From positions 607,631-671,630 of the forward strand of contig NZ_LMKB01000005.1 in NCBI RefSeq assembly GCF_001421165.1: a DNA stretch of 64,000 nt. Direction: 5' to 3'. The position numbers and the translations under genes are program-made. Below are positions 702 through 62,373 of this stretch, in pieces (the first letter of the stretch is position 1; every line of letters begins with the position of its first letter). Origin of the DNA: Frigoribacterium sp. Leaf8. GTDB taxonomy: Bacteria > Actinomycetota > Actinomycetes > Actinomycetales > Microbacteriaceae. Below the pieces are notes generated by a model. The model searched no databases, was not told the DNA's origin, and saw only the letters and a list, made by a program, of their open reading frames with translations.

Positions 702-809
702 AGTGAAGTGCGGGGCGGGCCGGGGCGGCGGTGCGGTGGGTGCAGGAGGCGCGGGCCGGGTCGGCGGACAGGGCGCGGACGAGCAGGGCGGGCTGGGTAC
801 GCTGACGGG

Positions 810-1643
810 GTGACCGATGCTGCCGAGCCGACCCGCGCCTCCTCGTCCGACCGATCCACCGGGACGCCCTGGGCGGACGACCTGGCGCTCGCGCTCGAGC
901 TGGCCGACCTGGCCGACGCGATCAGCACCGAGCGGTACCGGTCGGCCGACCTGCACGTGTCGCTCAAGCCCGACCGCTCGCACGTGACCGACGCCGACCA
1001 GGCCGTCGAGCGGGCGATCCGCGACCGGGTCGCCGGCGCGCGGCCCGACGACACCTTCTACGGCGAGGAGTACGGCCACGACGCTCCCTCGCACCGCCAG
1101 TGGGTGGTCGACCCGATCGACGGCACGGCGAACTTCCTGCGCGGGGTGCCGGTCTGGGCGGCGTTGATCTCGCTCGTCGTCGACGGGGTGCCCGTGGTGG
1201 GCGTGGTCAGTGCTCCCGCGCTCGGCCGGCGCTGGTGGGCGACGCAGGGCGGCGGGGCGTTCTCGACCGAGCACGACGGGCCGCTGCGGGTGTCGGGCGT
1301 GCGCGACCTGGCCGACGCGTCCCTGAGCTTCAACGGACTCGAGTACTGGATCGACGCCGGGCGCCTGCCGCAGCTGCTCGACCTGACGAGCCGGGTCTGG
1401 CGGACGCGGGCCTACGGCGACTTCTGGTCGTACATGCTCGTCGCCGAGGGCGCGCTCGACGTCGCGGGCGAGTTCGACCTGCAGCCCTACGACATGGCCG
1501 CCGTGGCGGTCGTCGTCGAGGAGGCCGGCGGACGATTCACCAGTGCCGACGGCCGGCCGGGCCCCTGGCACGGCACCGCGATGGCGACGAACGGACTGCT
1601 GCACGAGAGCGTCCTCGGGGTCGTGGCCGCGCCTCCTGCCTGA
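810..1643 (+). CDS. hisN: Inositol-monophosphatase-family histidinol-phosphatase
   Basis: A 277-residue Mg-dependent phosphatase of the inositol monophosphatase superfamily. In actinobacteria this subgroup is HisN, which removes phosphate from L-histidinol phosphate in histidine biosynthesis; a role on another sugar phosphate cannot be excluded. The metal site is complete: GEEYG near residue 80, WVVDPIDGTANF near residue 95 and the late FDLQPYDMAA near residue 225. The GTG start at 810 is chosen because the family similarity begins soon after it, and the frame further upstream runs into the intergenic repeat. Residues 8-12 are TRASS, encoded by a copy of the dispersed CGCGCCTCCT motif. A second copy overlaps the last codons. 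Confidence 0.88.
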   Translation: MTDAAEPTRASSSDRSTGTPWADDLALALELADLADAISTERYRSADLHVSLKPDRSHVTDADQAVERAIRDRVAGARPDDTFYGEEYGHDAPSHRQWVVDPIDGTANFLRGVPVWAALISLVVDGVPVVGVVSAPALGRRWWATQGGGAFSTEHDGPLRVSGVRDLADASLSFNGLEYWIDAGRLPQLLDLTSRVWRTRAYGDFWSYMLVAEGALDVAGEFDLQPYDMAAVAVVVEEAGGRFTSADGRPGPWHGTAMATNGLLHESVLGVVAAPPA

Positions 1644-1878
1644 TCGGCACCGGCGGTCGAGGTTCATCCCTGCGACGGAGGGCGACTCAGCCCTGCGCTT
1701 ATGTTCACGCAACGTGCGGACGGCTTGACTGATCACACGACGTCACCGGCTCCGCACAGGGGCACCGAGCAGCTCGGGCAGGGTCGTCAGGGGCCCCGCC
1801 GCCCGTGTCCCTGCACGGGCGGCCGGGCCTCGCCAACCGCGTCACCGACCGCGTCACCAGCCGATCGAAAGGCCCATC

Positions 1879-3771: not shown

Positions 3772-3831
3772 GCCCCGCGCCTCCCGGGCTCCGACGGTCG
3801 AGGGGACCGAGAGCCGAGGAGGCGCGGGGGC
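3772..3831 (-). terminator. Hairpin terminator downstream of fdhA, built from the dispersed motif
   Basis: CCCCGCGCCTCC near 3773-3784 pairs without mismatch with GGAGGCGCGGGG near 3819-3829, and flanking GGCTC/GAGCC extends the stem. It begins 9 bases after the fdhA stop (minus strand). Both arms are copies or near-copies of the CGCGCCTCCT motif in inverted orientation. Confidence 0.6.
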
Positions 3832-7476: not shown

Positions 7477-8450
7477 TGCCCGACGCACGCCGCAAGAGGG
7501 GCTCGCGCGCACGTGCCCGCCGCCGCCTGGCCATCATCGGGATCGGGGCCTTCGTCCTCGTCGACCTCGGACTCGTCGCCCTGGCGCTGAACCGCGAACC
7601 GTCTGGTCTGGCTGCCGACGCCGAGCCCGCCGCCACGTCGACGCCTCGCCCGGTCGAGACCGAGAGCACACCGTCGCCCACCGCGACCCCCACCACCGCC
7701 GCCGAGGCCGTGACGCCGACGCGCCTCCTGTCGGTCGTCGACGCGGGCACCGCGTGGCGCGCGCAGGCCGCGAGCTGCACCCCCGGCACCGTCGCGTCGG
7801 CGCCCGTCGTCGAACAGACGACGTCGGGAGGCGCCACCTGGTCGGCCACGTCGGTCGAGACCGGTGGCTCCCTCGCCGGCCTGGACCGCCTGCAGGCGAC
7901 CGACGCGTCGTCGGCCTTCGTCGTCGGACCGGCCGGGGACGACTGCGCGCCGGCGTTCGCCCAGACCTTCAGCGGGGGTGCCGAGTACCGCGACTACCCC
8001 GAGCGACTGGCGGCATCGTGGTACGTCGCCCGGACCGCGCCCGGCACCGTGCACTCCCCCTCGGGTGACCGTGCGGCCCCGTGCCCGACCGTCGTCGACC
8101 TCGCGGTCGTGAGCGACGCCGAGGCCGGTGTGCTGTGCAGCGACCGGACGTTCTTCCGCACCGGTGACGGCGCGACCACCTGGGACGCGGGCACCGTCGT
8201 CGACGGCGCCGTCGCCGTCACCGCCGCCTCGGGCTCGTACCTCGTCGCCTCGACCGGTGCCGCCGACTGCGACGGCACGGCCGTCGTGACGCCGCCGACC
8301 GCGTCGGGCGCGGCCGCGACGACCGTGGGCTGCGCGCCGGCGTCGTCCGAGACGCCCGGAGCGATCGCGCTCTCGGCCTCGGCGGCGGCGGTCTGGCTCT
8401 GGGCCGACGACGTCGTGTCGGTGTCGACGGACGGCGGGGTGACCTGGTGA
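7476..8450 (+). CDS. Membrane-anchored exported protein with Asp-box repeats, unknown role in polysaccharide locus
   Basis: A 324-residue protein with a basic N-terminus, a single membrane segment (LAIIGIGAFVLVDLGLVALAL), a Pro/Thr/Ser-rich linker (residues 45-80) and an extracellular domain. The domain carries at least three Asp-box-like sequences: TSGGATW, TGDGATTWDAG and STDGGVTW at the very C-terminus. Asp-boxes mark beta-propeller folds (BNR, sialidase, WD-like). Here the propeller looks short or incomplete. Four cysteines may pair outside the cell. It is encoded between the phosphatase and the WbpM-like enzyme with overlaps at both ends (1 and 4 bases), so it is part of the operon. It might bind the polymer or help localise its assembly; no enzymatic residues are recognised. 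Confidence 0.7.
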   Translation: MPDARRKRGSRARARRRLAIIGIGAFVLVDLGLVALALNREPSGLAADAEPAATSTPRPVETESTPSPTATPTTAAEAVTPTRLLSVVDAGTAWRAQAASCTPGTVASAPVVEQTTSGGATWSATSVETGGSLAGLDRLQATDASSAFVVGPAGDDCAPAFAQTFSGGAEYRDYPERLAASWYVARTAPGTVHSPSGDRAAPCPTVVDLAVVSDAEAGVLCSDRTFFRTGDGATTWDAGTVVDGAVAVTAASGSYLVASTGAADCDGTAVVTPPTASGAAATTVGCAPASSETPGAIALSASAAAVWLWADDVVSVSTDGGVTW

Positions 8451-10267
8451 TCGACCGGTTCATGGCCTCGCCGGCGCGACGGACCGCCCTGCAGGTGGGG
8501 CTCGACGCCCTCTCGTGGGTCGTCGCGATCTTCTTCGCCGTGTCGCTGCGCTACGACTTCTGGTACGGCGACGTCACCTGGCGGGCGGTCTTCGGCGTCG
8601 CCGCCGTGACGGTCGTCGTCGGGGCGGCACTCGGCTACGCGACGGGGCTCTACCGTCGCCGGTTCGTGCCGGGCAGCTTCGCCGAGGTGCGCACCATCGT
8701 CACGGTGGTCGTCGGGACGGGGCTGATCGTCGGCATCCCCGTCCTCGCGATCGGGACCGAGATCATGTTGGCGCGCAGCACCGTGTTCATCGCCATGCCG
8801 GTCGTCTTCGTCTTCATGGGAGCCCTGCGCTACGTGGCCCGGCTCTACGTCGAGACGCAGAGCCGCCCCGGCGAGAGTGCCCAACCGACGCTCATCTTCG
8901 GAGCGGGCCGTCTCGCCAACCACCTCGTCCGCCGCATGCTGACCGACCCGGCCTCGCCGTACCTCCCCGTCGGCCTGATCGACGACGACCGCACGCGGTC
9001 GAGCCTGCGCATCGAGGGCGTGCGCGTCCTCGGGACGAGACAGGACCTCGTCGCCGCCGCCGAGCGGAGCGGGGCGAAGGCGATCATCATCGGCATCGCG
9101 AAGGCCGACGCCCCCCTGCTGCAGGACGTCACCGACCGGGCCGCCGAGGCCGGACTCCGCGTGATGGTCCTCCCCCTGCTCGACGAGATCCTCGAGGGCA
9201 AGTCGCGGCTCGGCGACGTGCGCGACATCGCCATCGAGGACATCATCGGCCGCCACCCGGTCGACACGCAGGTCGAGTCGATCGCGGGCTACCTGGCGGG
9301 CAAGCGCGTCCTCGTCACGGGAGCCGGCGGGTCGATCGGCAGCGAGCTGTGCCGCCAGATCGCCAAGTTCGGCCCCGCCGAGCTGATCATGCTCGACCGT
9401 GACGAGACCGGTCTGCAGCAGTCGCAGCTGTCGATCTCGGGCAACGGCCTGCTCGACACCAAGGAGGTCGTGCTGGCCGACATCAGGGACCCGGAGGCGC
9501 TGCGAGCGATCTTCGCGGACCGTCGACCCGAGGTGGTCTTCCATGCCGCGGCGCTGAAGCACCTGCCGATGCTCGAGCAGTACCCCGACGAGGCGTGGAA
9601 GACGAACGTGCTCGGCACCCAGAACGTGCTCGACGCGAGCAAGGCCGTCGGGGTGACGACGTTCGTCAACATCTCGACCGACAAGGCGGCGAACCCGACG
9701 AGCGTGCTCGGGCACTCGAAGCGCCTGGCCGAGCGGCTCACGGCCTGGACCGCCGACGAGACCGGTGCCCGCTACCTGTCGGTGCGGTTCGGCAACGTGC
9801 TGGGCAGCCGCGGGTCGATGCTGCCGGTGTTCACGTCCCTGATCGAGGCCGGTGGCCCGCTGACGATCACGCACCCCGACGTGACGCGGTTCTTCATGAC
9901 CATCCCTGAGGCGTGCCACCTCGTGGTGCAGGCGGGTGGGATCGGTTCGCCCAGCGAGGTGCTCATCCTCGACATGGGCGAGCCCGTGCGCATCCTCGAC
10001 ATCGCCGAACGCATGATCGCCATGTCGGGCCGGGACATCGGCATCGTCTACACGGGCCTGCGCGAGGGCGAGAAGATGCACGAGGAGCTCGTCGGCCTCG
10101 GCGAGAGCGACAACCGGCCCGTGCACCCGAAGATCTCGCACACCACCGTGCCGGCGCTGCACCCGTCGCAGCTCGAGGGCGTGCACGCCCACGTGGGCCC
10201 GTGGACGGCGGAGCTCGCGCAACCCGGCGCCTCGGAGTCACCCACGCACGTCGAGGACCCCGCGTGA
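8447..10267 (+). CDS. WbpM/PglF-type membrane UDP-GlcNAc 4,6-dehydratase
   Basis: A 606-residue nucleotide-sugar dehydratase with four predicted N-terminal helices (residues 10-130) and two Rossmann regions. The first is GAGRLANHLVRRML. The second is the catalytic SDR domain with VTGAGGSIGSELCRQI near residue 285 and STDKAANPTSVLGHSKR near residue 405. The family turns UDP-GlcNAc into UDP-4-keto-6-deoxy-GlcNAc, the precursor of QuiNAc, FucNAc or bacillosamine. In WbpM the usual SDR tyrosine is replaced by Met; here the same position reads Leu (VLGHSK), which is worth noting. The GTG start overlaps the previous stop by four bases. Together with the next two genes it resembles the WbpM-WbpL-WbpV set of Pseudomonas. 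Confidence 0.88.
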   Translation: MIDRFMASPARRTALQVGLDALSWVVAIFFAVSLRYDFWYGDVTWRAVFGVAAVTVVVGAALGYATGLYRRRFVPGSFAEVRTIVTVVVGTGLIVGIPVLAIGTEIMLARSTVFIAMPVVFVFMGALRYVARLYVETQSRPGESAQPTLIFGAGRLANHLVRRMLTDPASPYLPVGLIDDDRTRSSLRIEGVRVLGTRQDLVAAAERSGAKAIIIGIAKADAPLLQDVTDRAAEAGLRVMVLPLLDEILEGKSRLGDVRDIAIEDIIGRHPVDTQVESIAGYLAGKRVLVTGAGGSIGSELCRQIAKFGPAELIMLDRDETGLQQSQLSISGNGLLDTKEVVLADIRDPEALRAIFADRRPEVVFHAAALKHLPMLEQYPDEAWKTNVLGTQNVLDASKAVGVTTFVNISTDKAANPTSVLGHSKRLAERLTAWTADETGARYLSVRFGNVLGSRGSMLPVFTSLIEAGGPLTITHPDVTRFFMTIPEACHLVVQAGGIGSPSEVLILDMGEPVRILDIAERMIAMSGRDIGIVYTGLREGEKMHEELVGLGESDNRPVHPKISHTTVPALHPSQLEGVHAHVGPWTAELAQPGASESPTHVEDPA

Positions 10268-11277
10268 GCGTCGGTTTCTGGACCGCCGCCGTACTGTGCC
10301 TGCTCGCCTCCGCACTGCTCCCCTTCGCGGTGCGACCGCTCCTGTACCGTTTCGCCGTGGTCGACGTCCCGAGCGAACGCTCGTCCCACGTCCGCCCCAC
10401 CCTTCGCGGTGGCGGGATCGCCCCCGGCATGGGGATCGTCCTCGGCACGCTCGTCCTGGCGGCCGCGGTCCCGGGCGTCAGCGGTCGACTGCTCGTCGTG
10501 ATCGCCGTCGCCAGCGCAGCCTTCGCCATCCTGGGGTTCGCGGACGACGTGCGCAGCCTCGGCTCCCTCAGCCGTGCCGTCGTCCAGATGGTCATCGCCA
10601 CCGTGGCCTGCGTGGCGATCGTGACCATCGCCGAGGGTCCGTGGTGGCTGTACGTCCTGGGCCCCGTCGCCGTCGCCGGCTACGTCAACGTCGCGAACTT
10701 CATGGACGGCATCAACACGGTGTCCGGCCTGCACGGAACCATCGTGGGAGCCTCGTTCGTGGTGTCGGGGGCGTTGGCCGGACAGCCCTGGCTCACGGGC
10801 CTCGGCACGTGCATCGCCCTGGCCTTCCTGGCGTTCGTCCCCTGGAACGTCGTGGGTCGACGGATGTTCCTCGGTGACGTCGGAAGTTACCTGCTGGGCG
10901 GGACGATCGCCGTGGCCGCCGTGGCCGCCATCGCCGTCGGTGTGCCTCTGGTCGCCGTCGTCGCACCGCTCGTGCCTTACCTCGTCGACACGTCCAGCAC
11001 CCTCGCCCGCCGGGTGGCGCGACGCGAGCGCTGGTTCGAGGCACACAACACCCACGTGTACCAAGTGCTGGCGCGTCGCCACGGCCACGTGCCCGCGTCG
11101 TCGATCGTGACCGCGGCCACCGTGGCCTGTGCCGCGGCCGGTTCGCTCGCGTTCGTCGGTCCGGTCGGTGCCGTCGCAGCGGTCGTCCTCTTCGCGGTGA
11201 TCGCGGCCGTCTACCTGTCACTTCCGAGCTGGACCCTGCGGCTCACCCACCGAGAGGCGCGTGTCGAGCATGTCTGA
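10264..11277 (+). CDS. WecA/WbpL-type undecaprenyl-phosphate sugar-1-phosphate transferase
   Basis: A polytopic membrane enzyme of 337 residues from the MraY/WecA/TagO family. It loads the first sugar phosphate of a polysaccharide unit onto undecaprenyl phosphate. Family signatures are present in order: FADDVRSL (the Asp pair), NVANFMDGINT (N-x-x-N-F-x-D-G-x-N), FLGDVGS, and HNTHVYQVL (the His motif of the WecA branch). About ten hydrophobic segments are seen. GTG 10264 overlaps the upstream stop by four bases. Given its neighbours, the donor is likely a UDP-2-acetamido-2,6-dideoxy sugar such as UDP-QuiNAc rather than UDP-GlcNAc; that is inference. Confidence 0.88.
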   Translation: MSVGFWTAAVLCLLASALLPFAVRPLLYRFAVVDVPSERSSHVRPTLRGGGIAPGMGIVLGTLVLAAAVPGVSGRLLVVIAVASAAFAILGFADDVRSLGSLSRAVVQMVIATVACVAIVTIAEGPWWLYVLGPVAVAGYVNVANFMDGINTVSGLHGTIVGASFVVSGALAGQPWLTGLGTCIALAFLAFVPWNVVGRRMFLGDVGSYLLGGTIAVAAVAAIAVGVPLVAVVAPLVPYLVDTSSTLARRVARRERWFEAHNTHVYQVLARRHGHVPASSIVTAATVACAAAGSLAFVGPVGAVAAVVLFAVIAAVYLSLPSWTLRLTHREARVEHV

Positions 11278-12235
11278 GACCCGTGACGCGACGACCTGGG
11301 TCGTGATCGGAGCGAGTGGCTTCGTCGGGAGTCGGATCGTCGCCGACGCCCGCTCGCGCGGCATCACGATCGTCGAGCTCGCGGCGCCCCGGCTCGAGGC
11401 TGTGCCCGCGTCGGTCGCGGCGGCGCGAACAGCCGCGGCCGGTGCCGTCGACGTCGTGGACGAGCTCGCCGCCGCCTTCCGCGGGGCTGGGGTCGTCGTC
11501 AACGCGGCGGGCCTCGCGACCCCCGACGCCGAGATGTCGGCATCCCTCGTCGGCGCCAACGCCGCCCTTCCCCTCGTCGCACTCGCCGCCGCTCGTCGGA
11601 GCGGTGCGAGGAGGTTCGTGCACCTGAGTTCCGCCGCCGTCCAGGGCCCGGTGCCCGTCCTCGACGAGTCGACACGGACGCTGCCCTTCTCGCCGTATTC
11701 GCAGAGCAAGGCCTGGGGCGAGCAACTGCTCGTCGAGGCGCGCGCCGAGGGCGCCCCGGACGACGTGACGGAGGTCGTCGTCGTGCGTGCCACCTCGGTG
11801 CAGGGGCCCGGGCGCCCCACGACGGACCGTCTCCGACGCATCGCGGCGTCACCCCTCGCATCGGTCGCTTCACCGGGCGACGCACCCACGCCCGTGACCA
11901 GCGTCGCGGCCCTCGCCGAGTTCGTGACGGCGGTCGGGACCTTCGAGGGAATCGTGCCCGCCGTCGTCCTGCAGCCCTGGGAGGGGCTCACGGTCTCCTC
12001 CGTGCTCGAGGCGGCCGGCGGGCGGTCACCCCGACGCCTGCCACGCCTGCTGTGCCGTTTCGTCGTGGGTTCTGCCCGCGTCGTCTCGCGACTGATCGGT
12101 GGACGCCTCGCCGGGCCGATCCGACGGGTGGAGCTGATGTGGTTCGGTCAGGGCCAGACGAGCGGTTGGGCCGAGAGCGTGGGCATCCGTCCGACGCCCG
12201 CCGTCGCCGACCTGCTCCGCGGGGGTGACGCGTGA
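11261..12235 (+). CDS. NAD-dependent epimerase/reductase, WbpV-like (extended SDR)
   Basis: A 324-residue short-chain dehydrogenase of the extended sugar-nucleotide type. The cofactor motif is GASGFVGSR near residue 20, LSSAAVQG near residue 130, and the catalytic Y-x-x-x-K is YSQSKAWGE near residue 149. Placed directly after a WbpM-like dehydratase and a WbpL-like transferase, it is the best candidate for the 4-keto reductase that completes UDP-QuiNAc or UDP-D-FucNAc. Start choice is uncertain. GTG 11261 lies three bases after GAGAGG and ATG 11270 twelve bases after it; both overlap the preceding gene. The C-terminal part (near GRSPRRLPRLLCRF) matches the usual SDR tail region loosely. Confidence 0.78.
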   Translation: MSSMSETRDATTWVVIGASGFVGSRIVADARSRGITIVELAAPRLEAVPASVAAARTAAAGAVDVVDELAAAFRGAGVVVNAAGLATPDAEMSASLVGANAALPLVALAAARRSGARRFVHLSSAAVQGPVPVLDESTRTLPFSPYSQSKAWGEQLLVEARAEGAPDDVTEVVVVRATSVQGPGRPTTDRLRRIAASPLASVASPGDAPTPVTSVAALAEFVTAVGTFEGIVPAVVLQPWEGLTVSSVLEAAGGRSPRRLPRLLCRFVVGSARVVSRLIGGRLAGPIRRVELMWFGQGQTSGWAESVGIRPTPAVADLLRGGDA

Positions 12236-13488
12236 GGATCGGCATCTTGACCCAGTGGTACGACCCCGAACCGGGGCCAGCTGCGATCCCGGGTGTCCTG
12301 GCCCGCGAGTTCGCGGCGGCAGGGCACGAGGTCCGCGTGCTGACGGGGTTCCCGAACTACCCGACGGGGCGTGTGTACCCCGGTCACCGCCAGACGTGGC
12401 GGAGGACGAGCACGGTCGACGGTGTCACGGTGACCCGCGTCCCGCTGTACGCGAGCCATGACTCGTCCGCCGTCGGACGAGCGCTGAACTACCTGAGCTT
12501 TGCCGTCTCGGCCACGGTCCTCGGGGCGAGGTCGCTGCGTGGCTGTGACATGGTCTGGGTCTACAACTCGCCGGCGACGGTGGCGTTGCCCCTGCTCGTC
12601 CACACCCGATGGGGGCGTCTGCCGTACTTCTTGCACGTGCAGGACCTGTGGCCCGACTCGCTCGTCCACAGCGGCATGTTCCCGGACGGTCGCGCCGGAC
12701 GCCTCGCCCTGGCCGCCGTCTCGAAGACGGTGTCGCTGACGGAACGCCTGGCGCGACGGGTCGGGGTCATCTCGCCCAGCGTCGCGGATCTCATCCAGCG
12801 ACGGAACCGTCACGTCGGGCCGGACGACGTCGTCTACGTGCCGAACCCGACCGACGAGGGCCTCTTCACGTTCGACGAGGTGCGCGAGCGTCGCGACGGG
12901 GAACCGTTCGTCCTGATGTACTCGGGTGCCATCGGGGACGTCCAGGGGCTCGAGAACGTCGTCGAGGCCGTCGGGGCATTGCCCTCGGACGTCGATCTGC
13001 GGCTCGTCCTGGTCGGTGACGGCATCGCCCTCGATCGCCTCAGAGCTCTCGCCTCACGAGTCGACGATGGAGGGCGCATCGAGTTCGTCGGCCGGGTGCC
13101 CAAGGAACGCGTGCCGGGTCTCATGAAGCAAGCCCACGCTCACCTGGTCTCCCTCGGGGCGTCGGAGTTCCTCGAGCACACGACGCCCAGCAAGATCCCG
13201 TCGTTGCTCGCGTCCGGCGCCGTGGTAGTCGGCGTCATCGCCGGTGACGGTGCCCTCTTGATCACCGAGTCCGGTGCCGGCACCGTCGTCCCCCCGGGCG
13301 ACGCTGGCGCGCTGCAGGACGCGCTCATCTCGCTGACCCACCTGACGACGGAGGACCTCCGGGGTCGAGGCCGCTCGGGTCGCCATCACTACGACGCCCA
13401 TTTCTCGGCCGATCGCGCAGCAGCCGCCATCATTGACGCAACGTCACCCACGAGTTCCGACCAGCACGCCACGAAGGACCGATCTTGA
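12232..13488 (+). CDS. WbuB-like glycosyltransferase (GT4), candidate L-FucNAc transferase
   Basis: A retaining GT-B glycosyltransferase of 418 residues. The N-terminal domain starts MRIGILTQWYDPEPG and contains GFPNYPTGRVYPG and FLHVQDLWPDSL, features of WbuB/WbvB enzymes, which transfer L-FucNAc to the lipid-linked first sugar in E. coli O26-type loci. The C-terminal nucleotide-sugar domain shows YSGAIGDVQGLENVVEA, LVGDGIALDRL and HTTPSKIPSLLASG, with the acceptor/donor Glu-containing segment ASEFLEHTTPSK. GTG 12232 overlaps the previous stop. The adjacent CapE-F-G genes make the donor that WbuB uses, which supports the assignment. Confidence 0.82.
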   Translation: MRIGILTQWYDPEPGPAAIPGVLAREFAAAGHEVRVLTGFPNYPTGRVYPGHRQTWRRTSTVDGVTVTRVPLYASHDSSAVGRALNYLSFAVSATVLGARSLRGCDMVWVYNSPATVALPLLVHTRWGRLPYFLHVQDLWPDSLVHSGMFPDGRAGRLALAAVSKTVSLTERLARRVGVISPSVADLIQRRNRHVGPDDVVYVPNPTDEGLFTFDEVRERRDGEPFVLMYSGAIGDVQGLENVVEAVGALPSDVDLRLVLVGDGIALDRLRALASRVDDGGRIEFVGRVPKERVPGLMKQAHAHLVSLGASEFLEHTTPSKIPSLLASGAVVVGVIAGDGALLITESGAGTVVPPGDAGALQDALISLTHLTTEDLRGRGRSGRHHYDAHFSADRAAAAIIDATSPTSSDQHATKDRS

Positions 13489-19899: not shown

Positions 19900-19900
19900 C

Positions 19901-21172: not shown

Positions 21173-21190
21173 GGGCGTGAGGTTCGATCA

Positions 21191-28463: not shown

Positions 28464-29373
<910 letters not shown>

Positions 29374-44143: not shown

Positions 44144-44162
44144 CTCGGGTCGGAGACGACGA

Positions 44163-48581: not shown

Positions 48582-49748
48582 TCAGCGGGCGCCGAGCACC
48601 GGGGCGCGGTCGGCGTAACCGGCCGTCGTGGCGCGCGCGACGGCGGTCGGGAGCGCCGCGAGCAGCGCGTCGACGTCGGCCTCGGTGCTCGTGTGGCCGA
48701 TCGTCATGCGGAGCGCACCGCGGGCCGCGTCCGCCGGCAGGCCCATGCCGAGCAGCACGTGGGACGGTTCGGGGATGCCCGCCTGGCAGGCCGATCCGGT
48801 CGAGACGCTGACCCCGGCGGCGTCGAGCAGGAACAGCAACGAGTCGCCCTCGCACCCGTCGAAGGTGAAGTGGGCGTTGCCGGGCAGCCGGTCGACGGGG
48901 TCGCCCCGCAGCACGGCCCCGGGCACCGACGCCAGCACCCCGGCGATCAGCCGGTCCCGCAGCGGCTCGTAGGCCCCGTGCGGCTGCTCGGCCGCCACGG
49001 CGAAGGCGACGGCGGCCGGGGCGTCCTGCGTGCCCGAGCGCACCTGTCGTTGCTGTCCGCCCCCGTGGATCAGGGGCACGACGGTCGCCGACCGCGACAG
49101 CACGAGCGCGCCGATGCCGATGGGCCCGCCGATCTTGTGGGCGCTGACGCTGAGCGCCGCGAGCCCGGAGGCCGCGAAGTCGATCGGCACCTGCCCGTAG
49201 GCGGCGACGGCGTCCGAGTGCACCGGCACCCCGTGGGCGGCGGCGAGCGCCACGACCTCGTCGACGGGCTGCATCGTGCCGACCTCGTTGTTGGCCCAGA
49301 GCAGGCTGACCAGGGCGACGTCGTCGTGCTCGTCGAGGGCCGCGGCGAGGGCGTCGACGCGCAGCCGGCCCTGCTCGTCGAGCGGCAGCCAGGTGACGAC
49401 GGCGCCCTCGTACCGTTCGAGCCACTCGACGGTGTCGACGGTGGCGTGGTGCTCGCCGGCGGGGACGAGGAGGCGCGGCCGCGGTCGGTCGGACTGCCTC
49501 GCCCACCACAGTCCCTTGATCGCGAGGTTGACCGCCTCGGTGCCGCCCGAGGTGAAGACGATCTCGATCGGGTCGCAGCCGAGGGTCGCGGCCACGCGCT
49601 CGCGGGCCTCTTCGAGGACGCGCTTGGCGTTCTGGCCGGCCGAGTGGATGGACGACGGGTTGCCGACCGTGCCGAGCGCCTCGGCGTAGGCGGCGATCGC
49701 CGCCGGGTGCATCGGCGTGGTGGCCGCGTGGTCGAGGTAGACGCTCAT
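48582..49748 (-). CDS. Cysteine desulfurase (NifS/IscS family)
   Basis: A PLP enzyme of 388 residues that mobilises sulfur from L-cysteine for Fe-S clusters or tRNA thiolation. The start VYLDHAATTPMHPAAIAAY is diagnostic. The PLP Lys is in SVSAHKIGGPIGIGAL near residue 205, the His in GTEAVN/PAGEHHATVD near 100, and the active Cys in VSTGSACQAGIPEPSHVLLGMG near residue 322 (class I loop). In actinobacteria this single gene next to trmU-like genes usually serves tRNA thiolation; that neighbour is not visible here. It is divergent from glgX with a 78-base gap. Confidence 0.93.
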   Translation of the reverse strand: MSVYLDHAATTPMHPAAIAAYAEALGTVGNPSSIHSAGQNAKRVLEEARERVAATLGCDPIEIVFTSGGTEAVNLAIKGLWWARQSDRPRPRLLVPAGEHHATVDTVEWLERYEGAVVTWLPLDEQGRLRVDALAAALDEHDDVALVSLLWANNEVGTMQPVDEVVALAAAHGVPVHSDAVAAYGQVPIDFAASGLAALSVSAHKIGGPIGIGALVLSRSATVVPLIHGGGQQRQVRSGTQDAPAAVAFAVAAEQPHGAYEPLRDRLIAGVLASVPGAVLRGDPVDRLPGNAHFTFDGCEGDSLLFLLDAAGVSVSTGSACQAGIPEPSHVLLGMGLPADAARGALRMTIGHTSTEADVDALLAALPTAVARATTAGYADRAPVLGAR

Positions 49749-49814
49749 GTTCGGGTCCTCAGGCTGGGTGGGGCGGAGACGCTCGATGATTTCGGGGCCG
49801 ACACGCGCCTCCTC

Positions 49815-52372: not shown

Positions 52373-52400
52373 CCCGCGCCGCGCCTCCTCGGATCTGCGG

Positions 52401-53185: not shown

Positions 53186-55303
53186 TCAGACCAGCTGCTT
53201 CTCGCGGGCGAAGTGGCACGCGGCCGTGTGGTCGGCCCCGTCGCGTCCGTGCGGCAGCATCGCGGGGACCTCGTCCTCGCAGCGCGACCGCTGCGCCTCG
53301 GGCAGCATCGCGTAGAGCGGGCAGCGGCTGCGGAACCGGCAGCCGGTCTGCTTGACGGTCGGCGTGGGCGGGTCGCCCGGCAGCACGATGTGCTCGCGTG
53401 CCCGTTCCTTGACGGGGTCGGGCACGGGCACGGCCGACAGCAGCGCCTGCGTGTACGGGTGCAGCGGGTGCTCGAACACCTCGTCGACCGGTCCCGTCTC
53501 GACGGTGCGGCCGAGGTACATCACCGTGACGCGGTCGGCCACGTGACGGATGACCGAGAGGTCGTGCGACACGAAGAGGTACGACAGGTCGAGCTTCGCC
53601 TTGAGCTCGGCCAGCAGGTTCAGCACGCCGGCCTGGATCGACACGTCCAGCGCCGACACCGGCTCGTCGAGCACGATGAGCTTCGGGTCGGCGGCGAGCG
53701 CCCGCGCGATCGAGATGCGCTGCCGCTGGCCACCCGAGAACTCGTGGGGGTAGCGCGTCGCGGCGGCGGGCTCGAGCCCGACGAGGCGCATCAGCTCGGG
53801 CACCCGACGCGACACCTCGTCGCGGGGCCGACCGATCGCGAGCAACGGCTCGGCGATGATGTCGCTGACCGGCTGCCTCGGGTCGAGGCTCGCCATCGGG
53901 TCCTGGAAGACCATGGACACGGCACCGCGCAGCCGCTTCACCGTCGACCCGTCGAGCTTTCGGTCGAGGGCCGTGCCGAGCAGCTCGATGGTGCCGGCCT
54001 CGGGCACCCGGAGGTCCATGATCTCGTGCAGCGTCGTGCTCTTGCCCGAGCCGGACTCGCCGACCAGGCCGAGGGTCTCGCCCTCGCGCACGTCGAGGTC
54101 GACCCCGTCGACCGCCCAGACGCTGCCCACGCGTCGCTTGAAGACCGACCCCTTGGTGAGCGGGAACGTCTTGACGAGCCCGTCGACGTGCAGCACCCGG
54201 TCCCGCTCCGCCCGCGGGACGGCAGCGAGGCCCGAGGTCGGCACGGGCGGCAGGTCGTAGACGTCCTCGGGGTCGGTGCCCTCCCCCACCAGCTGGTCGG
54301 CGTGCAGGCAGGCCGCGCGGTGACCCGCCTCGACCGCCGGAGCCTGCTCGAGCGCGGGCTCGTCGACCCGGCACTCGGCCGTCGCCAGGGGGCACCGCGC
54401 CGCGAACGGGCAGCCCGGCGCCAGCGACAACAGCGACGGCGGTGTGCCGGGGATCGGCACGAGCGGCTGGTCCGACCGTTGGTCGAGGCGCGGCAGCGCG
54501 CCGATGAGACCCACGGTGTAGGGCATGCGCGGGTGGGCGAAGAGGTCGTCGGCCGTCGCCGTCTCGACGACGCGGCCGGCGTACATCACGGCGATGCGGT
54601 CGGCGAACCCGGCGATGACGCCGAGGTCGTGGCTGACGAACAGCAGCGCGGCCCCGGTCTCGCGCTGCGCCGTGCGCAGCACCGAGATGACCTGGGCCTG
54701 GATCGTCACGTCGAGGGCCGTGGTCGGCTCGTCGGCGAGGATGACGTCGGGGTCGTTCGCGATCGCCATGGCGATCATCGCGCGCTGCCGCATGCCGCCC
54801 GAGAACTCGTGCGGGAACGAGTCGACGCGTCGCTCCGGCTCGGGGATGCCCACGAGCCCCAGCAGCTCGATCGCCCGCTCACGAGCCTGCTTCTTCGTGC
54901 CGCCGCGGTGGATCAGGACCGTCTCGGCGATCTGCTGACCGACCGTGTACACCGGGGTGAACGCCGAGAGCGGGTCCTGGAAGACCATCGCGATCCGTTT
55001 GCCGCGGATCGCCGACATCGCCTTGTCGCCGCGGCCGAGCAGTTCTTCGCCGTCGAGCGTGATCGACCCCGTCACCTTGGCCGTGGCGGGCAGCAGGCCG
55101 AGCACGGCCAGGCTCGTGACCGACTTGCCCGAGCCCGACTCGCCCACGATGCCGAGCACCTCGCCGCGGCGCAGCGTCAGGTCGACGCCGCGGACGGCGC
55201 GCACGTCGCCGTCCGGGGTCGGAAAGGTCACGGTGAGGTCGTGCACCTCGAGCACCGGAGCCGAGGAGGCGCGGGTGCGGTCGACCGGTTCGGTGAGCGT
55301 CAT
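53186..55303 (-). CDS. Fused OppD-OppF ABC ATPase
   Basis: A 705-residue protein with two complete ABC domains for an oligopeptide-type importer. Domain 1 (residues 18-335): Walker A GESGSGKSVTSLAVLG, signature EFSGGMRQRAMIAMAI, Walker B VILADEPTTALD, then the OppD cysteine cluster GCPFAARCPLATAEC. Domain 2 (residues 368-690): GESGSGKSTTLHEIMDL, EFSGGQRQRISIARAL, LIVLDEPVSALD, and the second cluster GCRFRSRCPLYAMLPEAQRSRC, possible iron-sulfur sites. Such tandem fusions are common in actinobacteria. TRASS at residues 10-14 precedes the first domain and is encoded by a dispersed-motif copy. ATG 55303 overlaps the permease stop. Confidence 0.93.
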   Translation of the reverse strand: MTLTEPVDRTRASSAPVLEVHDLTVTFPTPDGDVRAVRGVDLTLRRGEVLGIVGESGSGKSVTSLAVLGLLPATAKVTGSITLDGEELLGRGDKAMSAIRGKRIAMVFQDPLSAFTPVYTVGQQIAETVLIHRGGTKKQARERAIELLGLVGIPEPERRVDSFPHEFSGGMRQRAMIAMAIANDPDVILADEPTTALDVTIQAQVISVLRTAQRETGAALLFVSHDLGVIAGFADRIAVMYAGRVVETATADDLFAHPRMPYTVGLIGALPRLDQRSDQPLVPIPGTPPSLLSLAPGCPFAARCPLATAECRVDEPALEQAPAVEAGHRAACLHADQLVGEGTDPEDVYDLPPVPTSGLAAVPRAERDRVLHVDGLVKTFPLTKGSVFKRRVGSVWAVDGVDLDVREGETLGLVGESGSGKSTTLHEIMDLRVPEAGTIELLGTALDRKLDGSTVKRLRGAVSMVFQDPMASLDPRQPVSDIIAEPLLAIGRPRDEVSRRVPELMRLVGLEPAAATRYPHEFSGGQRQRISIARALAADPKLIVLDEPVSALDVSIQAGVLNLLAELKAKLDLSYLFVSHDLSVIRHVADRVTVMYLGRTVETGPVDEVFEHPLHPYTQALLSAVPVPDPVKERAREHIVLPGDPPTPTVKQTGCRFRSRCPLYAMLPEAQRSRCEDEVPAMLPHGRDGADHTAACHFAREKQLV

Positions 55304-56397
55304 GCGCGCTCCCCCTTCTCGTCGTTCGTGCGGGTCGGCGCCGGCGAGCCGACGTCGGCCCCGGGGGCGGGGCTCGCGGCCTCGGAGACGCCGCCGGTGC
55401 GCCCGAGCGGCACCGCGCCTCCTCGGCTCTCGGCCGTCCGTCCGCGGGTGGGACGGCGACGACCGGTGCGCCCGGCCGTCGAGGTCGGGTCGAGCGCGTC
55501 CCGCAGCCCGTCACCCAGCAGGTTGCTGGCGAGGGCGAAGACGATCAGCGCACCGGCCGCGAAGAAGAACAGCCACGGCTTGGTGGTCGCCGCGCTCTGG
55601 TTCTGGGCGATCAGCGTGCCGAGCGAGACGTCGGGCGGCTGCACGCCGAAGCCGAAGTACGACAGCCCGGACTCGGTGAGCACCGCGGCCCCGATGGCGA
55701 TGGTGGCGTCGATCACGAGGAACGAGGCCACGTTCGGCAGGATGTGCCGCACGATGATGGTGAAGTGGCCGATGCCCATGTACCGGGCGGCGCGGATGAA
55801 CTCGCGCTCCTTGATGCTGAGGGTGAGCGAGCGCACCACGCGGGCCGTGATCATCCAGCCGAACAGGGCGAGCAGGGCCACCAGGATCAACCAGCCGTAC
55901 TGCTTGAGGCGCGGCGACAGGATCGCGATGATCAGGAACGACGGCAGCACGAGCAGCAGGTCGACGAAGACCATCACGGCCCGGTCGATCCAGCCGCCGA
56001 AGTAGCCGGCCATCGCGCCGAGCATGCCCGCGATCACCGTCGAGAACAGGGCGACCAGCAGGCCGATCAGCAGCGACTTCTGCAGGCCGCGCGCGGTCTG
56101 CGCGAAGACGTCCTGGCCGATGTTGTTCGTGCCGAACCAGTGCGCCCCGGTCGGCGGCGACGACAGGGCCGTGTAGTCGATGTAGTTGTAAGCGTACGGC
56201 GAGACGAGCGGGCCGACGAAGGCGAAGATGAAGAGCAGCACGATCGTCACGAGCCCGACGGTGGCCCCGCGGTTGGCGAACAGGCGACGGAAGGTCAGCG
56301 CGAAGCGGTTCGTCGACGTGGCGGCGACCTCTTCTCGCGACTCGGGCACGACGGCGTCGGACGGCCCCTCGAGCAGGTCGGGTGTGAACCGGGTCAT
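55300..56397 (-). CDS. ABC transporter permease, OppC type, with long C-terminal tail
   Basis: A 365-residue permease with a 30-residue polar start and a first helix (GATVGLVTIVLLFIFAFVGPLVSPY). The hallmark HWFGTNNIGQDVFAQTARGLQKSL follows, then the EAA loop IRAARYMGIGHFTIIVRHILPNVASF and a final helix ending NLLGDGLRDALDPTS, the usual end of OppC. About 62 more residues follow (Arg/Gly/Pro-rich, disordered in appearance), partly encoded by a dispersed-motif copy near SRGGAVPLG. The tail has no counterpart in normal OppC and may be a late addition. Confidence 0.9.
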   Translation of the reverse strand: MTRFTPDLLEGPSDAVVPESREEVAATSTNRFALTFRRLFANRGATVGLVTIVLLFIFAFVGPLVSPYAYNYIDYTALSSPPTGAHWFGTNNIGQDVFAQTARGLQKSLLIGLLVALFSTVIAGMLGAMAGYFGGWIDRAVMVFVDLLLVLPSFLIIAILSPRLKQYGWLILVALLALFGWMITARVVRSLTLSIKEREFIRAARYMGIGHFTIIVRHILPNVASFLVIDATIAIGAAVLTESGLSYFGFGVQPPDVSLGTLIAQNQSAATTKPWLFFFAAGALIVFALASNLLGDGLRDALDPTSTAGRTGRRRPTRGRTAESRGGAVPLGRTGGVSEAASPAPGADVGSPAPTRTNDEKGERA

Positions 56398-59922: not shown

Positions 59923-60821
59923 GGCTGCTCCCCCGAGGGGTCGACCTCGTCCGGGCGACGGCGTCCGACCGCCACGAACGCGCCCGACAGCACCGCGATC
60001 GCCGCGATCAGCAGCGGCAGCCAGCTGCCCCGCAAGGGCTCCGGCACGAAGTCGTCGAGCACGTCCAGGGAGTGGACGGGCAGCTCGGTGTCCGCGCCCG
60101 ACCCGTCGGCGGCCCCGCGCGAGGCGCCGTCGCCGACGGAGGGCGCCGTCTCGTCGGCCGCACCGGCCGAGGAGGCGCGGGTCGCCACCGCCTCGATCGT
60201 CGCGCTCGAGGCACGGTCGCCTCCCGCGCCTCCTGTGCTCGTCTCGGCGGGGTCCGCCGCGCCGGCGGTCCCGGCCGACGCGCAGCCGGCCGGCACGGCC
60301 GACCCGGCCAGCCCTGTGAGCGTGACGAGCACGGCGAAGTCCAGGGTCTGGTCACCGGTGCCCGCGGCGGCGGAGGCGTCGAGGTCGACCGAGACGGTGA
60401 CCGGGGCCTCCTGCCCGGCGGCGAGGCGGACCGGCGCGAGCACGGGGGTGCACCCGTCGCCGGACAGGGTGACGGGCGGCAGGTCGCCGACGTCGAGGTC
60501 GGAGTGCGAGCGGACCGTGACCGCCTCGGCGAACGCGGGCGACGAGGTCGTGACGTCGACGAGGCGGGCGCTGAGCACGGCCGGCGCGCTCGACAGGTTC
60601 TTGACCCAGAAGGTGCCCACCGTGCCGGCCCCGGGGACGAGCCGCAGTCCGTCGCCGAAGAGAGCGGAGTCGAGGCGACCCTGCCAGTGTCGGCCGTCGT
60701 CGCTCACCATGAGGCGAGGCGCGGTCGAGGCCGTGGCGGGAGCCGCGGCCGAGACGACGCCGGGGCCCAGGACGACCGCCGCGACGGCGACGACGACCGC
60801 GACCGCCCGACCGCCGGTCAC
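59919..60821 (-). CDS. Exported, C-terminally membrane-anchored protein of the second SipW locus
   Basis: A 300-residue protein with signal peptide VAVVVAVAAVVLGPGVVSAAAPATA. The beta-rich extracellular domain of about 170 residues contains LFGDGLRLVPGAGTVGTFWVKNLSSAPAVLSARLVDV, two cysteines (DGCTPVLAP, PAGCASAG) and repeated strands. A low-complexity linker (residues 195-255) includes TRASS and GGAGGDRASS, and the C-terminal helix is LPLLIAAIAVLSGAFVAV with a basic-acidic tail. It lacks the SipW-type tryptophan after the signal, so an ordinary peptidase may process it. It might tether the fibre to the membrane. The GTG at 60821 overlaps the upstream stop. Confidence 0.68.
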   Translation of the reverse strand: MTGGRAVAVVVAVAAVVLGPGVVSAAAPATASTAPRLMVSDDGRHWQGRLDSALFGDGLRLVPGAGTVGTFWVKNLSSAPAVLSARLVDVTTSSPAFAEAVTVRSHSDLDVGDLPPVTLSGDGCTPVLAPVRLAAGQEAPVTVSVDLDASAAAGTGDQTLDFAVLVTLTGLAGSAVPAGCASAGTAGAADPAETSTGGAGGDRASSATIEAVATRASSAGAADETAPSVGDGASRGAADGSGADTELPVHSLDVLDDFVPEPLRGSWLPLLIAAIAVLSGAFVAVGRRRPDEVDPSGEQP

Positions 60822-61777
60822 CCGCACTGGATGTTCCTCGTGCCGTACTGGTCGTAGACCACCGTGACCGTGCCGACGGCCATGAGGTCGGTCGGCTGCC
60901 CGTCGACCATCACGCGGATGTCGACGTGGATCGGGCCGTCGCCGAAGGGGTCCCTGGGCAGGTTGTCGCGGGTGAACGCGAAGTGCGGGTAGTCGCCGGT
61001 CCGCTCGTCGTTCGAGATCCGGGTGCCGCCGACGTAGGTCGCGTACCGGGTCGCGGTCGCCCGGGTCGACGGGTCGAAGTCGAGCCAGGCGTAGGCCTCG
61101 CCGTCGGTGCGGCAGACCGCCGTCTGCGGGGGGACGATCGTGTTGTTCTGGACGATCCGGCGGTCCTGCGGCGTGGCGGCCCACGACCCGGAGGCGAGCG
61201 ACGCCGTGAGGACCGGGTTCACGCGCCCGGTGGGAGAGGACGTCGCGATCGAGGTGCGGAGGCACCAGGTCGCGGCGGCCTTGCTCGCCAACGTCCCGGT
61301 GAGGTTCGGCACGGCGGACCAGGTGCCGCTGACGCTGCCCGGGCCGACGGCGGTCGTCGACGTGCACGCGGACGCGGCGGTCACCGGCCACGCGACGACG
61401 GCGATCGACGCGGCGAGGGCGGCGGAGCTGCCCGAGCTCAGGCTGCCGCTCGTCGAGTAGGACGCCGCGACCGTCCCCGAGTTCGTGAACGTCCAGGGCG
61501 CCGTGAGCGACCTGGTCGATCCGGCGTAGTCGGCCTGCAGGGCGTCGAGGGTGCCGGCCGTGAGGCCGACGGCGCCGGTCCTGACCTGTTCGGTGACGGT
61601 GGCGGACGCCGTCCAGAGGGCGGACGCCGCGCCTCCCGAGGCCAGGGCCACACCGACGATCACGCCCACGACGACGGCGGCCAGCGTCGATCGCGTGGTC
61701 GTCCGGGGCCGGCGCCCGCTCACGGTGCGGCGGCCGCTCACGGGGCGGCGCCCGTTCACGGGGCGGCGCCCGCTCAC
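60818..61777 (-). CDS. SipW-dependent exported protein with repeated N-terminus
   Basis: A 319-residue protein. Residues 1-24 are four copies of a V-S/N-G-R-R-P/T hexapeptide, each unit starting with GTG, followed by TTTRSTLAAVVVGVIVGVALASGGAASALWTASATV, a SipW-class signal with the typical A-L-W. The mature part is Thr/Ser/Ala-rich beta sequence, with a cysteine pair (SACTSTT, ATWCLRTS) and another late (AVCRTD, NIQCG). Homologous sequences in actinobacteria are usually small secreted proteins of unknown structure. Start codons are ambiguous among 61777, 61759, 61741 and 61723; the first overlaps the upstream stop and has no separate ribosome binding site. Confidence 0.7.
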   Translation of the reverse strand: MSGRRPVNGRRPVSGRRTVSGRRPRTTTRSTLAAVVVGVIVGVALASGGAASALWTASATVTEQVRTGAVGLTAGTLDALQADYAGSTRSLTAPWTFTNSGTVAASYSTSGSLSSGSSAALAASIAVVAWPVTAASACTSTTAVGPGSVSGTWSAVPNLTGTLASKAAATWCLRTSIATSSPTGRVNPVLTASLASGSWAATPQDRRIVQNNTIVPPQTAVCRTDGEAYAWLDFDPSTRATATRYATYVGGTRISNDERTGDYPHFAFTRDNLPRDPFGDGPIHVDIRVMVDGQPTDLMAVGTVTVVYDQYGTRNIQCG

Positions 61778-62373
61778 GGGGCCACCTGCGTCCCGGTCAG
61801 GACGAGCCCGATCGACGAGGTCTGGTTCTGCAGGGTCGCCGGGACGTCCGAGTCGAGTGTCACGACGACGCAGCCGGTGACGGTGACTCCGGCCGGCAAC
61901 GTGAAGTACCCGCTCCCCGTGTCGAACGCGGCGGGCCGGGCCGAGTAGCCGCCGACGCCGACGACGCAGTCCGCGGCCCTCGCCACGGCGGCGAGCCTGA
62001 CGGTCAGCTCGCCGGGCAGGGCGGACGCGGACGCCGTGGTGGTCCCGGCCGACACCCGCATGGCCAGGTCGACCGACCCCGTGTTGGTCGCGGTGAACGT
62101 CCCCGCGGTCGCGCCGCCGGGGCCGAGCGCGGACGTGTCGAGGGCCTTGACGGCGCCGACCGAGAGGCCCGCCGTCCCCGAACCGACCGTGACGGCCGTC
62201 GGCTTGACGGAGGAGTTCCACAGCGCGTAGGTCCCCCCGGTCGCCACGAGGGCGACGGTGACCGCGCCGGCCACGACGGCGGTCGCCGCCCACAGGGAGC
62301 GCAGCGGACGGCGGGACGAGGAGGCGCGCTCGACCGAGCGGTGACGCGCGCGTCCGCGGGACGGTCCGGTCAA
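61774..62373 (-). CDS. SipW-dependent exported protein
   Basis: A 199-residue secreted protein. A basic N-terminus (RGRARHRSVERASSSRRPLR) precedes the helix LWAATAVVAGAVTVALVATGG, followed by TYALWNSSVKP, the SipW-class Y-A-L-W box. The mature domain is a single beta-rich unit of about 135 residues with a cysteine pair (ADCVVGVG, TGCVVVTL). The start is TTG 62373, preceded by GGGGGTGAG at six bases, a strong site. The RASS at the N-terminus is encoded by the motif copy at 62319-62328. It is separated from the next upstream gene by a hairpin. Confidence 0.72.
   Translation of the reverse strand: MTGPSRGRARHRSVERASSSRRPLRSLWAATAVVAGAVTVALVATGGTYALWNSSVKPTAVTVGSGTAGLSVGAVKALDTSALGPGGATAGTFTATNTGSVDLAMRVSAGTTTASASALPGELTVRLAAVARAADCVVGVGGYSARPAAFDTGSGYFTLPAGVTVTGCVVVTLDSDVPATLQNQTSSIGLVLTGTQVAP

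What the first reader, a model, noticed from the sequence alone, without database searches (positions are those of the whole stretch)
744..62328. A dispersed 10-18 base DNA motif (core CGCGCCTCCT) scattered through genes and gaps
I count 27 exact cores in 64 kb. At about 70 percent GC, a ten-base word with two A/T bases would be expected less than once on both strands together. Matching flanks (GACCCGCGCCTCCTCGGC) argue against simple codon bias. The near-equal strand use (14 and 13), the mix of intergenic and in-gene positions and the inverted pairs in terminators resemble the DNA-uptake sequences of Neisseria and Haemophilus, or a chromosome-organising site. I know of no described element of this sequence in actinobacteria. 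It may be a sequence-recognition system (uptake, segregation, recombination hotspot, or a REP remnant) not yet named.
Basis: partly seen in the sequence, partly recalled or inferred. Interest (0 to 1): 0.82.

Follow-up and report, generated by a model that had tools for sequence, protein, structure and literature searches.

The report
Genus-specific dispersed DNA recognition word
Every genome examined of the leaf bacterium Frigoribacterium carries the same ten-letter DNA word hundreds to about 1,570 times on both strands, much like the "take up my own DNA" tags so far known only in two families of Gram-negative bacteria, but no receptor or experiment is yet known.

Summary
CGCGCCTCCT occurs 28 times in the window (14 on each strand; chance 0.8) and 1,422 times in its 3.33 Mb genome (700/722; reversed-word control 13). 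It is abundant in 16 of 16 genomes of the genus, Frigoribacterium (513-1,570 copies). In 195 other family genomes it reaches at most 216 and in 393 other class genomes at most 117. Codon use does not explain it (95 in genes against 12 in synonymous shuffles). The core GCGCCTCC is sharp. Copies show no strand polarity, lie six times denser outside genes, mostly just after stop codons, sometimes as inverted pairs in terminator-like hairpins. They turn over between species and are kept above background. No RAYT transposase is present (0 of 16). This is the anatomy of a DNA uptake sequence. ComEC and a Tad/Flp-type ATPase are present in 16 of 16, but they do not explain genus specificity. Type IV pilins are missing in 3 of 16 genomes that keep the word. 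Receptor and uptake are untested. Best reading: a first actinobacterial uptake-sequence-like system, about 50%; a chromosome-binding or 3'-end element remains possible.

The parts
744..753 (-). motif CGCGCCTCCT, outside predicted genes
834..843 (+). motif, in gene 810-1643
1628..1637 (+). motif, in gene 810-1643
3817..3826 (-). motif, outside predicted genes
7720..7729 (+). motif, in gene 7476-8450
7730..26518 (.). motif-free 18.8 kb stretch, largely a surface polysaccharide gene cluster; 8.0 copies expected at the genome mean
26519..26528 (-). motif with full 18-base extension GACCCGCGCCTCCTCGGC, in gene 24885-27488
26561..26570 (-). motif, in gene 24885-27488
26710..26719 (+). motif, in gene 24885-27488
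28466..28475 (+). motif, in gene 28460-29377
28513..28522 (-). motif, in gene 28460-29377
31371..31380 (+). motif, intergenic; RBS-like position (one of 8 of 186 in the sample); exact in 4 of 16 genomes
33189..33198 (+). motif, intergenic; exact in 4 of 16 genomes
33513..33522 (-). motif, intergenic; exact in 3 of 16 genomes
35402..35411 (+). motif, in gene 34904-35788; exact in 5 of 16 genomes
38876..38885 (-). motif, left arm of the inverted pair between smpB and ftsX; exact in 9 of 16 genomes
38905..38914 (+). motif, right arm of the inverted pair; exact in 12 of 16 genomes
40914..40923 (-). motif in prfB, within the peptide VLQSRLLLL; exact in 12 of 16 genomes
43685..43694 (-). motif, in gene 43494-44096; exact in 14 of 16 genomes
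44136..44145 (+). motif, intergenic; exact in 5 of 16 genomes
46474..46483 (-). motif, in gene 45986-46969; exact in 5 of 16 genomes
49468..49477 (-). motif, in gene 48582-49748; exact in 15 of 16 genomes
49804..49813 (+). motif, intergenic; exact in 8 of 16 genomes
52380..52389 (+). motif, intergenic, just after the stop of gene 51869-52372
55264..55273 (-). motif, in gene 53186-55303
55414..55423 (+). motif, in gene 55300-56397
60170..60179 (-). motif with full 18-base extension, in gene 59919-60827
60225..60234 (+). motif, in gene 59919-60827
62319..62328 (-). motif, intergenic

Best explanation
The word is a DNA-uptake-sequence-like tag of the genus Frigoribacterium. Inferred mechanism: a surface DNA receptor of the transformation machinery binds the core GCGCCTCC with graded help from its flanks (consensus roughly A....GACC-CGCGCCTCCT-SGKC) and brings in DNA that carries it. 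ComEA/ComEC then pass one strand into the cell and it recombines. Fragments with the word are imported more often than fragments without it, so copies that arise by point mutation are kept and spread between related strains, mostly where sequence is free to change (gene ends, compatible codon frames). Shown here: genus-wide abundance, sharp core, no polarity, enrichment after stop codons and in terminator-like hairpins, turnover of sites with retention above background, presence of comEC and a Tad/Flp-type ATPase in all 16 genomes. Inferred: the receptor, preferential uptake, and the drive by transformation.
For: Genome-wide count 1,422 against control 13. 16 of 16 genus genomes, 513-1,570 copies, controls 10-51; 195 other family genomes at most 216; 393 other class genomes at most 117. 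In a 464 kb sample 186 exact copies, while each single-base change at the 8 inner positions occurs 0-11 times. 95 in-gene copies against a mean of 12.4 and at most 21 in 40 synonymous shuffles. 1.47/kb outside genes against 0.24/kb inside; convergent gaps 4.33, tandem 1.37, divergent 0.70 per kb. 64 of 86 placeable outside copies lie within 60 bp after a stop codon. 11 inverted pairs in hairpin order 21-31 bp apart against 4 in the other order within 45 bp. Flank consensus is broadly alike in genic and intergenic copies of three genomes. No polarity: 67/67 and 61/60. Sites kept above nearby 10-mers: 196 of 239 against 0.57, 104 of 180 against 0.40, 26 of 50 against 0.25 in three clades. ComEC 16 of 16; a tadA-type ATPase 16 of 16. 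Tad (Flp pilus) genes are required for transformation of the actinobacterium Micrococcus luteus, which also has comEA and comEC (PMC4322843, passages).
Against: No receptor was found and no uptake was tested. Uptake specificity is described as known only in Neisseriaceae and Pasteurellaceae (PMC12616744, passages), both with an outer membrane. ComEC is widespread (10 of 14 control genomes), and tad with ComEA/ComEC is frequent in actinobacteria (PMC4322843, passages), so neither explains genus specificity. Type IV pilins, the usual class of uptake-sequence receptor, are not found in G200, G203 and G210, which keep 1,204-1,492 copies. One motif-free 20 kb stretch of G110 holds core genes (dnaE, hisD, COX1), so absence does not simply mark foreign DNA. 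The core specificity is looser in some genomes: in G110 inner one-mismatch forms outnumber exact copies (133 against 121), and the 8-mer core exceeds its reversed-word control only 2 to 6-fold in the larger samples. The 3'-end preference also suits an RNA or termination role. No paper on Frigoribacterium transformation turned up ('Frigoribacterium' with 'competence': 9 papers, listing only, none on topic).
Confidence: 0.5

Rival explanations
1. A genus-specific chromosome-binding protein (nucleoid-associated or organising) uses the word as a non-polar binding site spread over the chromosome.
For: Sharp core in the own genome, spread over two complete genomes without polarity; spacing near random, CV 0.96 for gaps over 150 bp; conservation above background; kept in genomes without type IV pilins.
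Against: Each of about 1,400 sites would need its own selection, yet single sites turn over freely between species. Inverted pairs in hairpins and preference for gene ends over promoters are not expected. No such protein is known to me; none was searched for.
Confidence: 0.22
2. A 3'-end element: the word, alone or as an inverted pair, helps end transcription or protect mRNA ends, and spread for that reason.
For: 64 of 86 placeable outside copies within 60 bp after a stop; convergent gaps densest; hairpin at 38876-38914.
Against: 95 of 186 sampled copies are inside genes on both strands (53 sense, 42 antisense), eight times expectation, where a terminator would do harm. Only 25 of 91 outside copies have an exact inverted partner within 45 bp. 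A hairpin does not need one fixed sequence.
Confidence: 0.13
3. A recombination or gene-conversion hotspot without polarity, maintained by biased conversion rather than by uptake.
For: Turnover with retention above background.
Against: The best known bacterial hotspot, Chi, is read in one orientation by an enzyme moving along DNA (recalled); here strands are balanced in both complete genomes sampled. No enzyme is known to me for this word.
Confidence: 0.07
4. A methylation or self-marking site of a restriction or defence system.
For: Genus specificity and sharp core.
Against: Restriction sites tend to be avoided rather than multiplied, and 10-base non-palindromic sites with 3'-end preference are unusual (recalled knowledge). 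No methyltransferase was tested.
Confidence: 0.04

Closest known systems
Neisseriaceae DNA uptake sequence (DUS), GCCGTCTGAA and dialects
   Same: Ten-base word in very many copies; inner core constant with varying outer bases between lineages (PMC3630211, passages); both strands and inverted pairs at terminators (recalled); atypical DUS distribution in mobile elements (PMC7371117, abstract), compare the motif-free stretches of G202.
   Different: Different sequence, Gram-positive actinobacterium, G+C-rich word. The Neisseria receptor ComP is a type IV minor pilin; here 3 of 16 genomes lack type IV pilin matches and keep the word. Uptake not shown.
Pasteurellaceae uptake signal sequence (USS)
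   Same: Short core (nine bases) with weaker flanks, abundant in the genome (PMC12616744, passages; many copies in genes, recalled).
   Different: Sequence unrelated; USS receptor only predicted (ComN/PpdA, PMC12616744, abstract and passages); family with an outer membrane.
HIP1 of cyanobacteria
   Same: Short word in thousands of copies (PMC1939737, passages, lists GGCGATCGCC in Synechocystis).
   Different: HIP1 is a palindrome and contains a methyltransferase site (same passage); this word is not palindromic.
Chi and other polar sites (KOPS)
   Same: Short non-palindromic words in about a thousand copies (Chi 1,008 in E. coli, PMC1939737, passages).
   Different: Chi and KOPS are skewed along the replication direction (recalled); this word is balanced.

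Membership tests
DNA uptake sequence / uptake signal sequence | 9-12 base word hugely over-represented genome-wide | tested here: met
   1,422 copies against 13 control; 16 of 16 genus genomes
DNA uptake sequence / uptake signal sequence | Both orientations, no replication polarity | tested here: met
   67/67 and 61/60 in 20 stretches of each of two complete genomes; origin and terminus were not located
DNA uptake sequence / uptake signal sequence | Strict inner core with graded flanks | tested here: met
   own genome; looser in G110 and G035
DNA uptake sequence / uptake signal sequence | Lineage dialects around a constant core | tested here: inconclusive
   Base after the core is T in 18 of 52 sites of G199 and G035 against 211 of 341 in G110, p 0.0003, comparator chosen after seeing the table; no single other base takes over, and most genomes were sampled over 20 kb only
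DNA uptake sequence / uptake signal sequence | Inverted pairs resembling terminators | tested here: met
   11 pairs in the 464 kb sample; one folded; termination itself not tested
DNA uptake sequence / uptake signal sequence | Depleted in foreign DNA | tested here: inconclusive
   None in the 18.8 kb polysaccharide stretch and in two G202 stretches, one with FtsK-like and nuclease genes; but also none in a core-gene stretch of G110
DNA uptake sequence / uptake signal sequence | Transformation machinery encoded | tested here: met
   ComEC 16 of 16; ComEA read in G000 only; tadA-type ATPase 16 of 16
DNA uptake sequence / uptake signal sequence | Sequence-specific surface receptor (type IV minor pilin in Neisseria) | tested here: inconclusive
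   Type IV pilin matches in 13 of 16; none in three genomes that keep the word; binding not tested
DNA uptake sequence / uptake signal sequence | Preferential uptake of DNA with the word | not testable with these tools
   needs an uptake assay
REP / RAYT element | Y1 (RAYT) transposase present | tested here: not met
   0 of 16 genomes
Chi / KOPS | Polarity along the replichore | tested here: not met
Shine-Dalgarno sequence | AGGAGG strand just upstream of start codons | tested here: not met
   8 of 186 copies in such a position
HIP1-like palindrome | Palindromic word | tested here: not met
   the word is not its own reverse complement (seen directly)

The most novel reading that the evidence does not exclude
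Actinobacteria of the family Microbacteriaceae have a whole set of uptake-sequence dialects. Frigoribacterium uses GCGCCTCC, and many other genera use CGGATGCC (up to 2,929 copies of CGGATGCCG). They discriminate self DNA in a cell without an outer membrane, possibly through Tad/Flp pili, and so form a third, independent origin of uptake specificity.
Probability: 0.27. Interest if true: 0.9.

Novelty: new variant of a known kind. Interest (0 to 1): 0.74.

Why it matters
A 2025 paper still calls Neisseriaceae and Pasteurellaceae the only families known to recognise own DNA by short words at uptake (PMC12616744, passages). An uptake word in a monoderm actinobacterium would show a third independent origin. 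It would also question the idea that specificity needs an outer membrane and a type IV minor pilin, and it would give leaf bacteria with 16 genomes held here as a model. Even if the word serves another purpose, an unexplained recognition system with about 500 to 1,570 sites per genome is present throughout the genus as sampled.

Tried and rejected
Ribosome-binding sites: 8 of 186 copies fit. Codon bias: rejected by synonymous shuffles. REP/RAYT: 0 of 16. Polar sites: rejected. Mobile insertion: where flanks align, alleles differ by substitutions inside the word (for example 44136, 49804, 40914, 49468). At 31371, 33189, 33513 and 46474 relatives show gaps or poor alignment, so insertion is not excluded there, and indels were not counted systematically.

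Type IV pilus as receptor: first favoured, because the pilin family PF07963 is in 60 of 110 family genomes including G000, the operon was read in G000, and the other word CGGATGCCG is commoner in pilin-positive genomes (median 203 against 77 per Mb among 85 genomes of 2.5 Mb or more, p 0.006; 27 of 53 against 7 of 32 reach 200 per Mb, no correction for kinship). It was weakened because three pilin-negative Frigoribacterium genomes keep the word, and G057, G060 and G106 have 1,707-2,245 copies of CGGATGCCG without pilin matches. Retention of sites in the pilin-negative clade is not lower relative to background.

Near-miss ratio as a sign of decay: exact/inner one-mismatch is 2.1 in the pilin-negative clade, 3.1 in G202, 4.9 in the clade A orthologous set, 0.9 in G110, 1.2 in the clade B orthologous set, 0.8 in G035; no link with the pilus.

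prfB example: the word is made by codon choice in a peptide shared across the family, but 6 of 65 non-Frigoribacterium loci matched also have it and the two named Frigoribacterium loci do not, so it is only illustrative. One search used too narrow a pattern (12 of 80 loci matched) and was redone as (67 of 80 matched, 13 dropped).

Literature: searches. One search (the word itself and its parts, 175 papers, 30 listed, none opened) gave titles on unrelated work; two searches gave none. Nothing on this word in actinobacteria was seen in these listings. Six papers were opened in part: passages of PMC4322843, PMC6370729, PMC12616744 (abstract too), PMC1939737 and PMC3630211, and the abstract of PMC7371117.
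Full report
Observation. The word CGCGCCTCCT occurs 28 times in the window, 14 on each strand; shuffles give 0.79 on average and 3 at most. The window lies in contig 5 of a 3.33 Mb genome of 12 contigs. There the word occurs 700 times on one strand and 722 on the other, against 4 and 9 for the word read backwards. The organism belongs to Frigoribacterium (Microbacteriaceae): the window's PrfB is 99% and 98% identical to those of Frigoribacterium sp. Leaf186 and CFBP 13712, and at most 87% to the others in a list of the best 80 loci.

Taxonomic range. In the 16 genomes held for the genus (G202 is of the window's own species) the word has 513 to 1,570 copies, controls 10 to 51. In a family draw of 199 genomes, 4 belong to the genus; the other 195 have at most 216 copies (G055), the next highest 124. 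In a class draw of 394 genomes only the window's own is high; the other 393 have at most 117. In the 80 named loci the density per 100 kb is 49.8 in Frigoribacterium (2 loci), 3.2 in Curtobacterium (12 loci) and 0 to 6 in the other groups.

Anatomy. In 464 kb of the own genome (20 stretches and the window) there are 186 copies. At the eight inner positions each single-base change occurs 0 to 11 times. Only the first position (A 26, T 10, G 6) and the last (C 40, G 34) are looser. In G110 the inner one-mismatch forms together (133) outnumber exact copies (121), so the core is less strict there. Outside the core there is a weak consensus, roughly A at -8, G at -4, A or C at -3, C at -1, then S G K C. 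It is broadly alike in genic and intergenic copies of G000, G202 and G110; paired copies number 30, 8 and 4 and differ somewhat at +11.

Placement. 91 of 186 copies lie outside predicted genes, which make up 13% of the sequence (1.47 against 0.24 per kb; own simple gene finder). 53 in-gene copies are on the sense strand and 42 antisense. Two of the six frames are nearly empty (3 and 0 copies); these would need CCT CCT or AGG AGG codons, which I take to be rare here (inferred, not counted). Within-gene synonymous shuffles give 12.4 copies on average, at most 21, against 95 observed. Gaps between convergent genes hold 4.33 per kb, tandem gaps 1.37, divergent gaps 0.70. 64 of 86 placeable outside copies lie within 60 bp after a stop codon. 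Eleven inverted pairs stand in hairpin order 21-31 bp apart, 4 in the other order within 45 bp. The pair between ftsX and smpB folds as a 22-pair stem. Most copies are single: 25 of 91 outside copies have an exact inverted partner within 45 bp. Spacing is near random (CV 0.96 for gaps over 150 bp; variance/mean 1.6 per stretch).

No polarity. In 20 evenly spread stretches of each of two complete genomes the strands are 67/67 and 61/60, without a consistent local bias. Origin and terminus were not located.

Evolution. A 16-genome alignment of the 20 kb around prfB shows old sites (14 and 15 of 16 genomes at 43685 and 49468) and young, clade-restricted ones. Where flanks align, alleles differ by substitutions within the word; at four of the twelve window sites aligned, relatives show gaps. 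Sites are kept more often than 10-mers nearby: 196 of 239 against 0.57, 104 of 180 against 0.40, and 26 of 50 against 0.25 in three clades (gap-free pairs only, pairs not independent). The core GCGCCTCC has 13-20 copies per 20 kb in all 16 genomes. Its reversed-word control is lower but not negligible: 63 against 375 in G000, 108 against 341 in G110, 17 against 35 in G035. The base after the core is less often T in G199 and G035 (18 of 52) than in G110 (211 of 341; p 0.0003, comparator chosen afterwards): a possible dialect, not settled.

Absence. The window's longest free stretch, 18.8 kb, is largely a surface polysaccharide cluster; 8.0 copies would be expected, chance of none 0.0003 by Poisson (chosen after seeing it). 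Among 60 sampled 20 kb stretches three have none: two in G202, one of which has an FtsK-like and a PD-(D/E)XK protein, and one in G110 with core genes such as dnaE. G202 is about 0.38 Mb larger than G000 but has only 13 more copies, in line with depletion in extra DNA. The G110 stretch shows that absence does not mark foreign DNA by itself.

Machinery. ComEC is in 16 of 16 genomes, and ComEA precedes it in G000. A type IV pilus operon was read in G000, with a motif pair between the pilA- and pilC-like genes (gene names by inspection of the translations, no family scan). Type IV pilin matches are found in 13 of 16 genomes and not in G200, G203 and G210. These three have 1,204, 1,249 and 1,492 copies. 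All 16 have a tadA-type ATPase match. In G000 a T2SSF (TadC-like) protein, a DUF4244 (Flp-like) protein and a TadE-like protein stand beside it; in G203 the DUF4244 and TadE-like ones were scanned, and the TadE matches are weak and below the curated cut-off. In the actinobacterium Micrococcus luteus tad (Flp pilus) genes are required for transformation, and its genome has comEA and comEC (PMC4322843, passages; the term 'uptake sequence' does not occur in that text). The Tad/Flp pilus, not the type IV pilus, is therefore the carrier that would fit all 16 genomes. But tad with ComEA/ComEC is frequent in actinobacteria (same passages) and cannot alone explain why only this genus has the word.

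Comparison. Uptake sequences of Neisseriaceae and Pasteurellaceae share most sequence-level features: word length, count and a strict inner core (PMC12616744 and PMC3630211, passages), and, as recalled, both orientations and terminator pairs. [quoted passage not shown] Membership is not claimed, because receptor and uptake are untested. The claim is that the word works like an uptake sequence, with about even odds.

Wider lead. Other genera have their own words. CGGATGCCG reaches 2,929 copies (G102) and is at control level in G000 and G035. CGGATGCC is above the maximum of 20 synonymous shuffles in 10 of 11 genomes tested (G048 equals it), spread alike in and out of genes, and hardly seen in convergent gaps in these 20-80 kb samples. 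It may be a second kind of word or another dialect.

Noticed in passing
family draw, G000-G109; L055, L059: A different non-palindromic word, CGGATGCC(G), is dispersed in hundreds to 2,929 copies in many Microbacteriaceae genera (G102, G063, G029, G025, G106 highest); CGGATGCC is 2-7 times synonymous expectation in 10 of 11 genomes tested.
   Followed up: partly
G034, L196-L199: Palindrome CGGATCCG occurs 45 times in 80 kb, 38 in genes against a synonymous-shuffle mean of 2.9; this genome has no type IV pilin match.
   Followed up: partly
G047, L217-L218: Word CAGGATCC 16 times in 40 kb (13 in genes against 1.6 expected).
   Followed up: no
G055, L180-L187 and L208: A partly similar word, CGCCTCCC, is raised about two-fold in genes over synonymous shuffles (69 against 30); G055 also has 216 CGCGCCTCCT.
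   Followed up: partly
L043 (G000 C5 near 430736): comEC reads on without a stop into a holA-like sequence; open frame 1192 aa. Fusion or missing stop not examined.
   Followed up: no
window 7730-26518: Motif-free surface polysaccharide cluster with low G+C (61-67% at 12-24 kb), perhaps laterally exchanged.
   Followed up: partly
window 37830-38207, minus strand: tmRNA gene with tag ANNKRTDFALAA; ftsX and prfB lie close by, smpB and ftsE by position and size only.
   Followed up: no
G202 C1 about 2.18-2.42 Mb (L137, L138): Two motif-free stretches; one has FtsK-like and PD-(D/E)XK proteins, and extra T2SSE matches lie at 2.39-2.42 Mb; possibly a conjugative element.
   Followed up: partly
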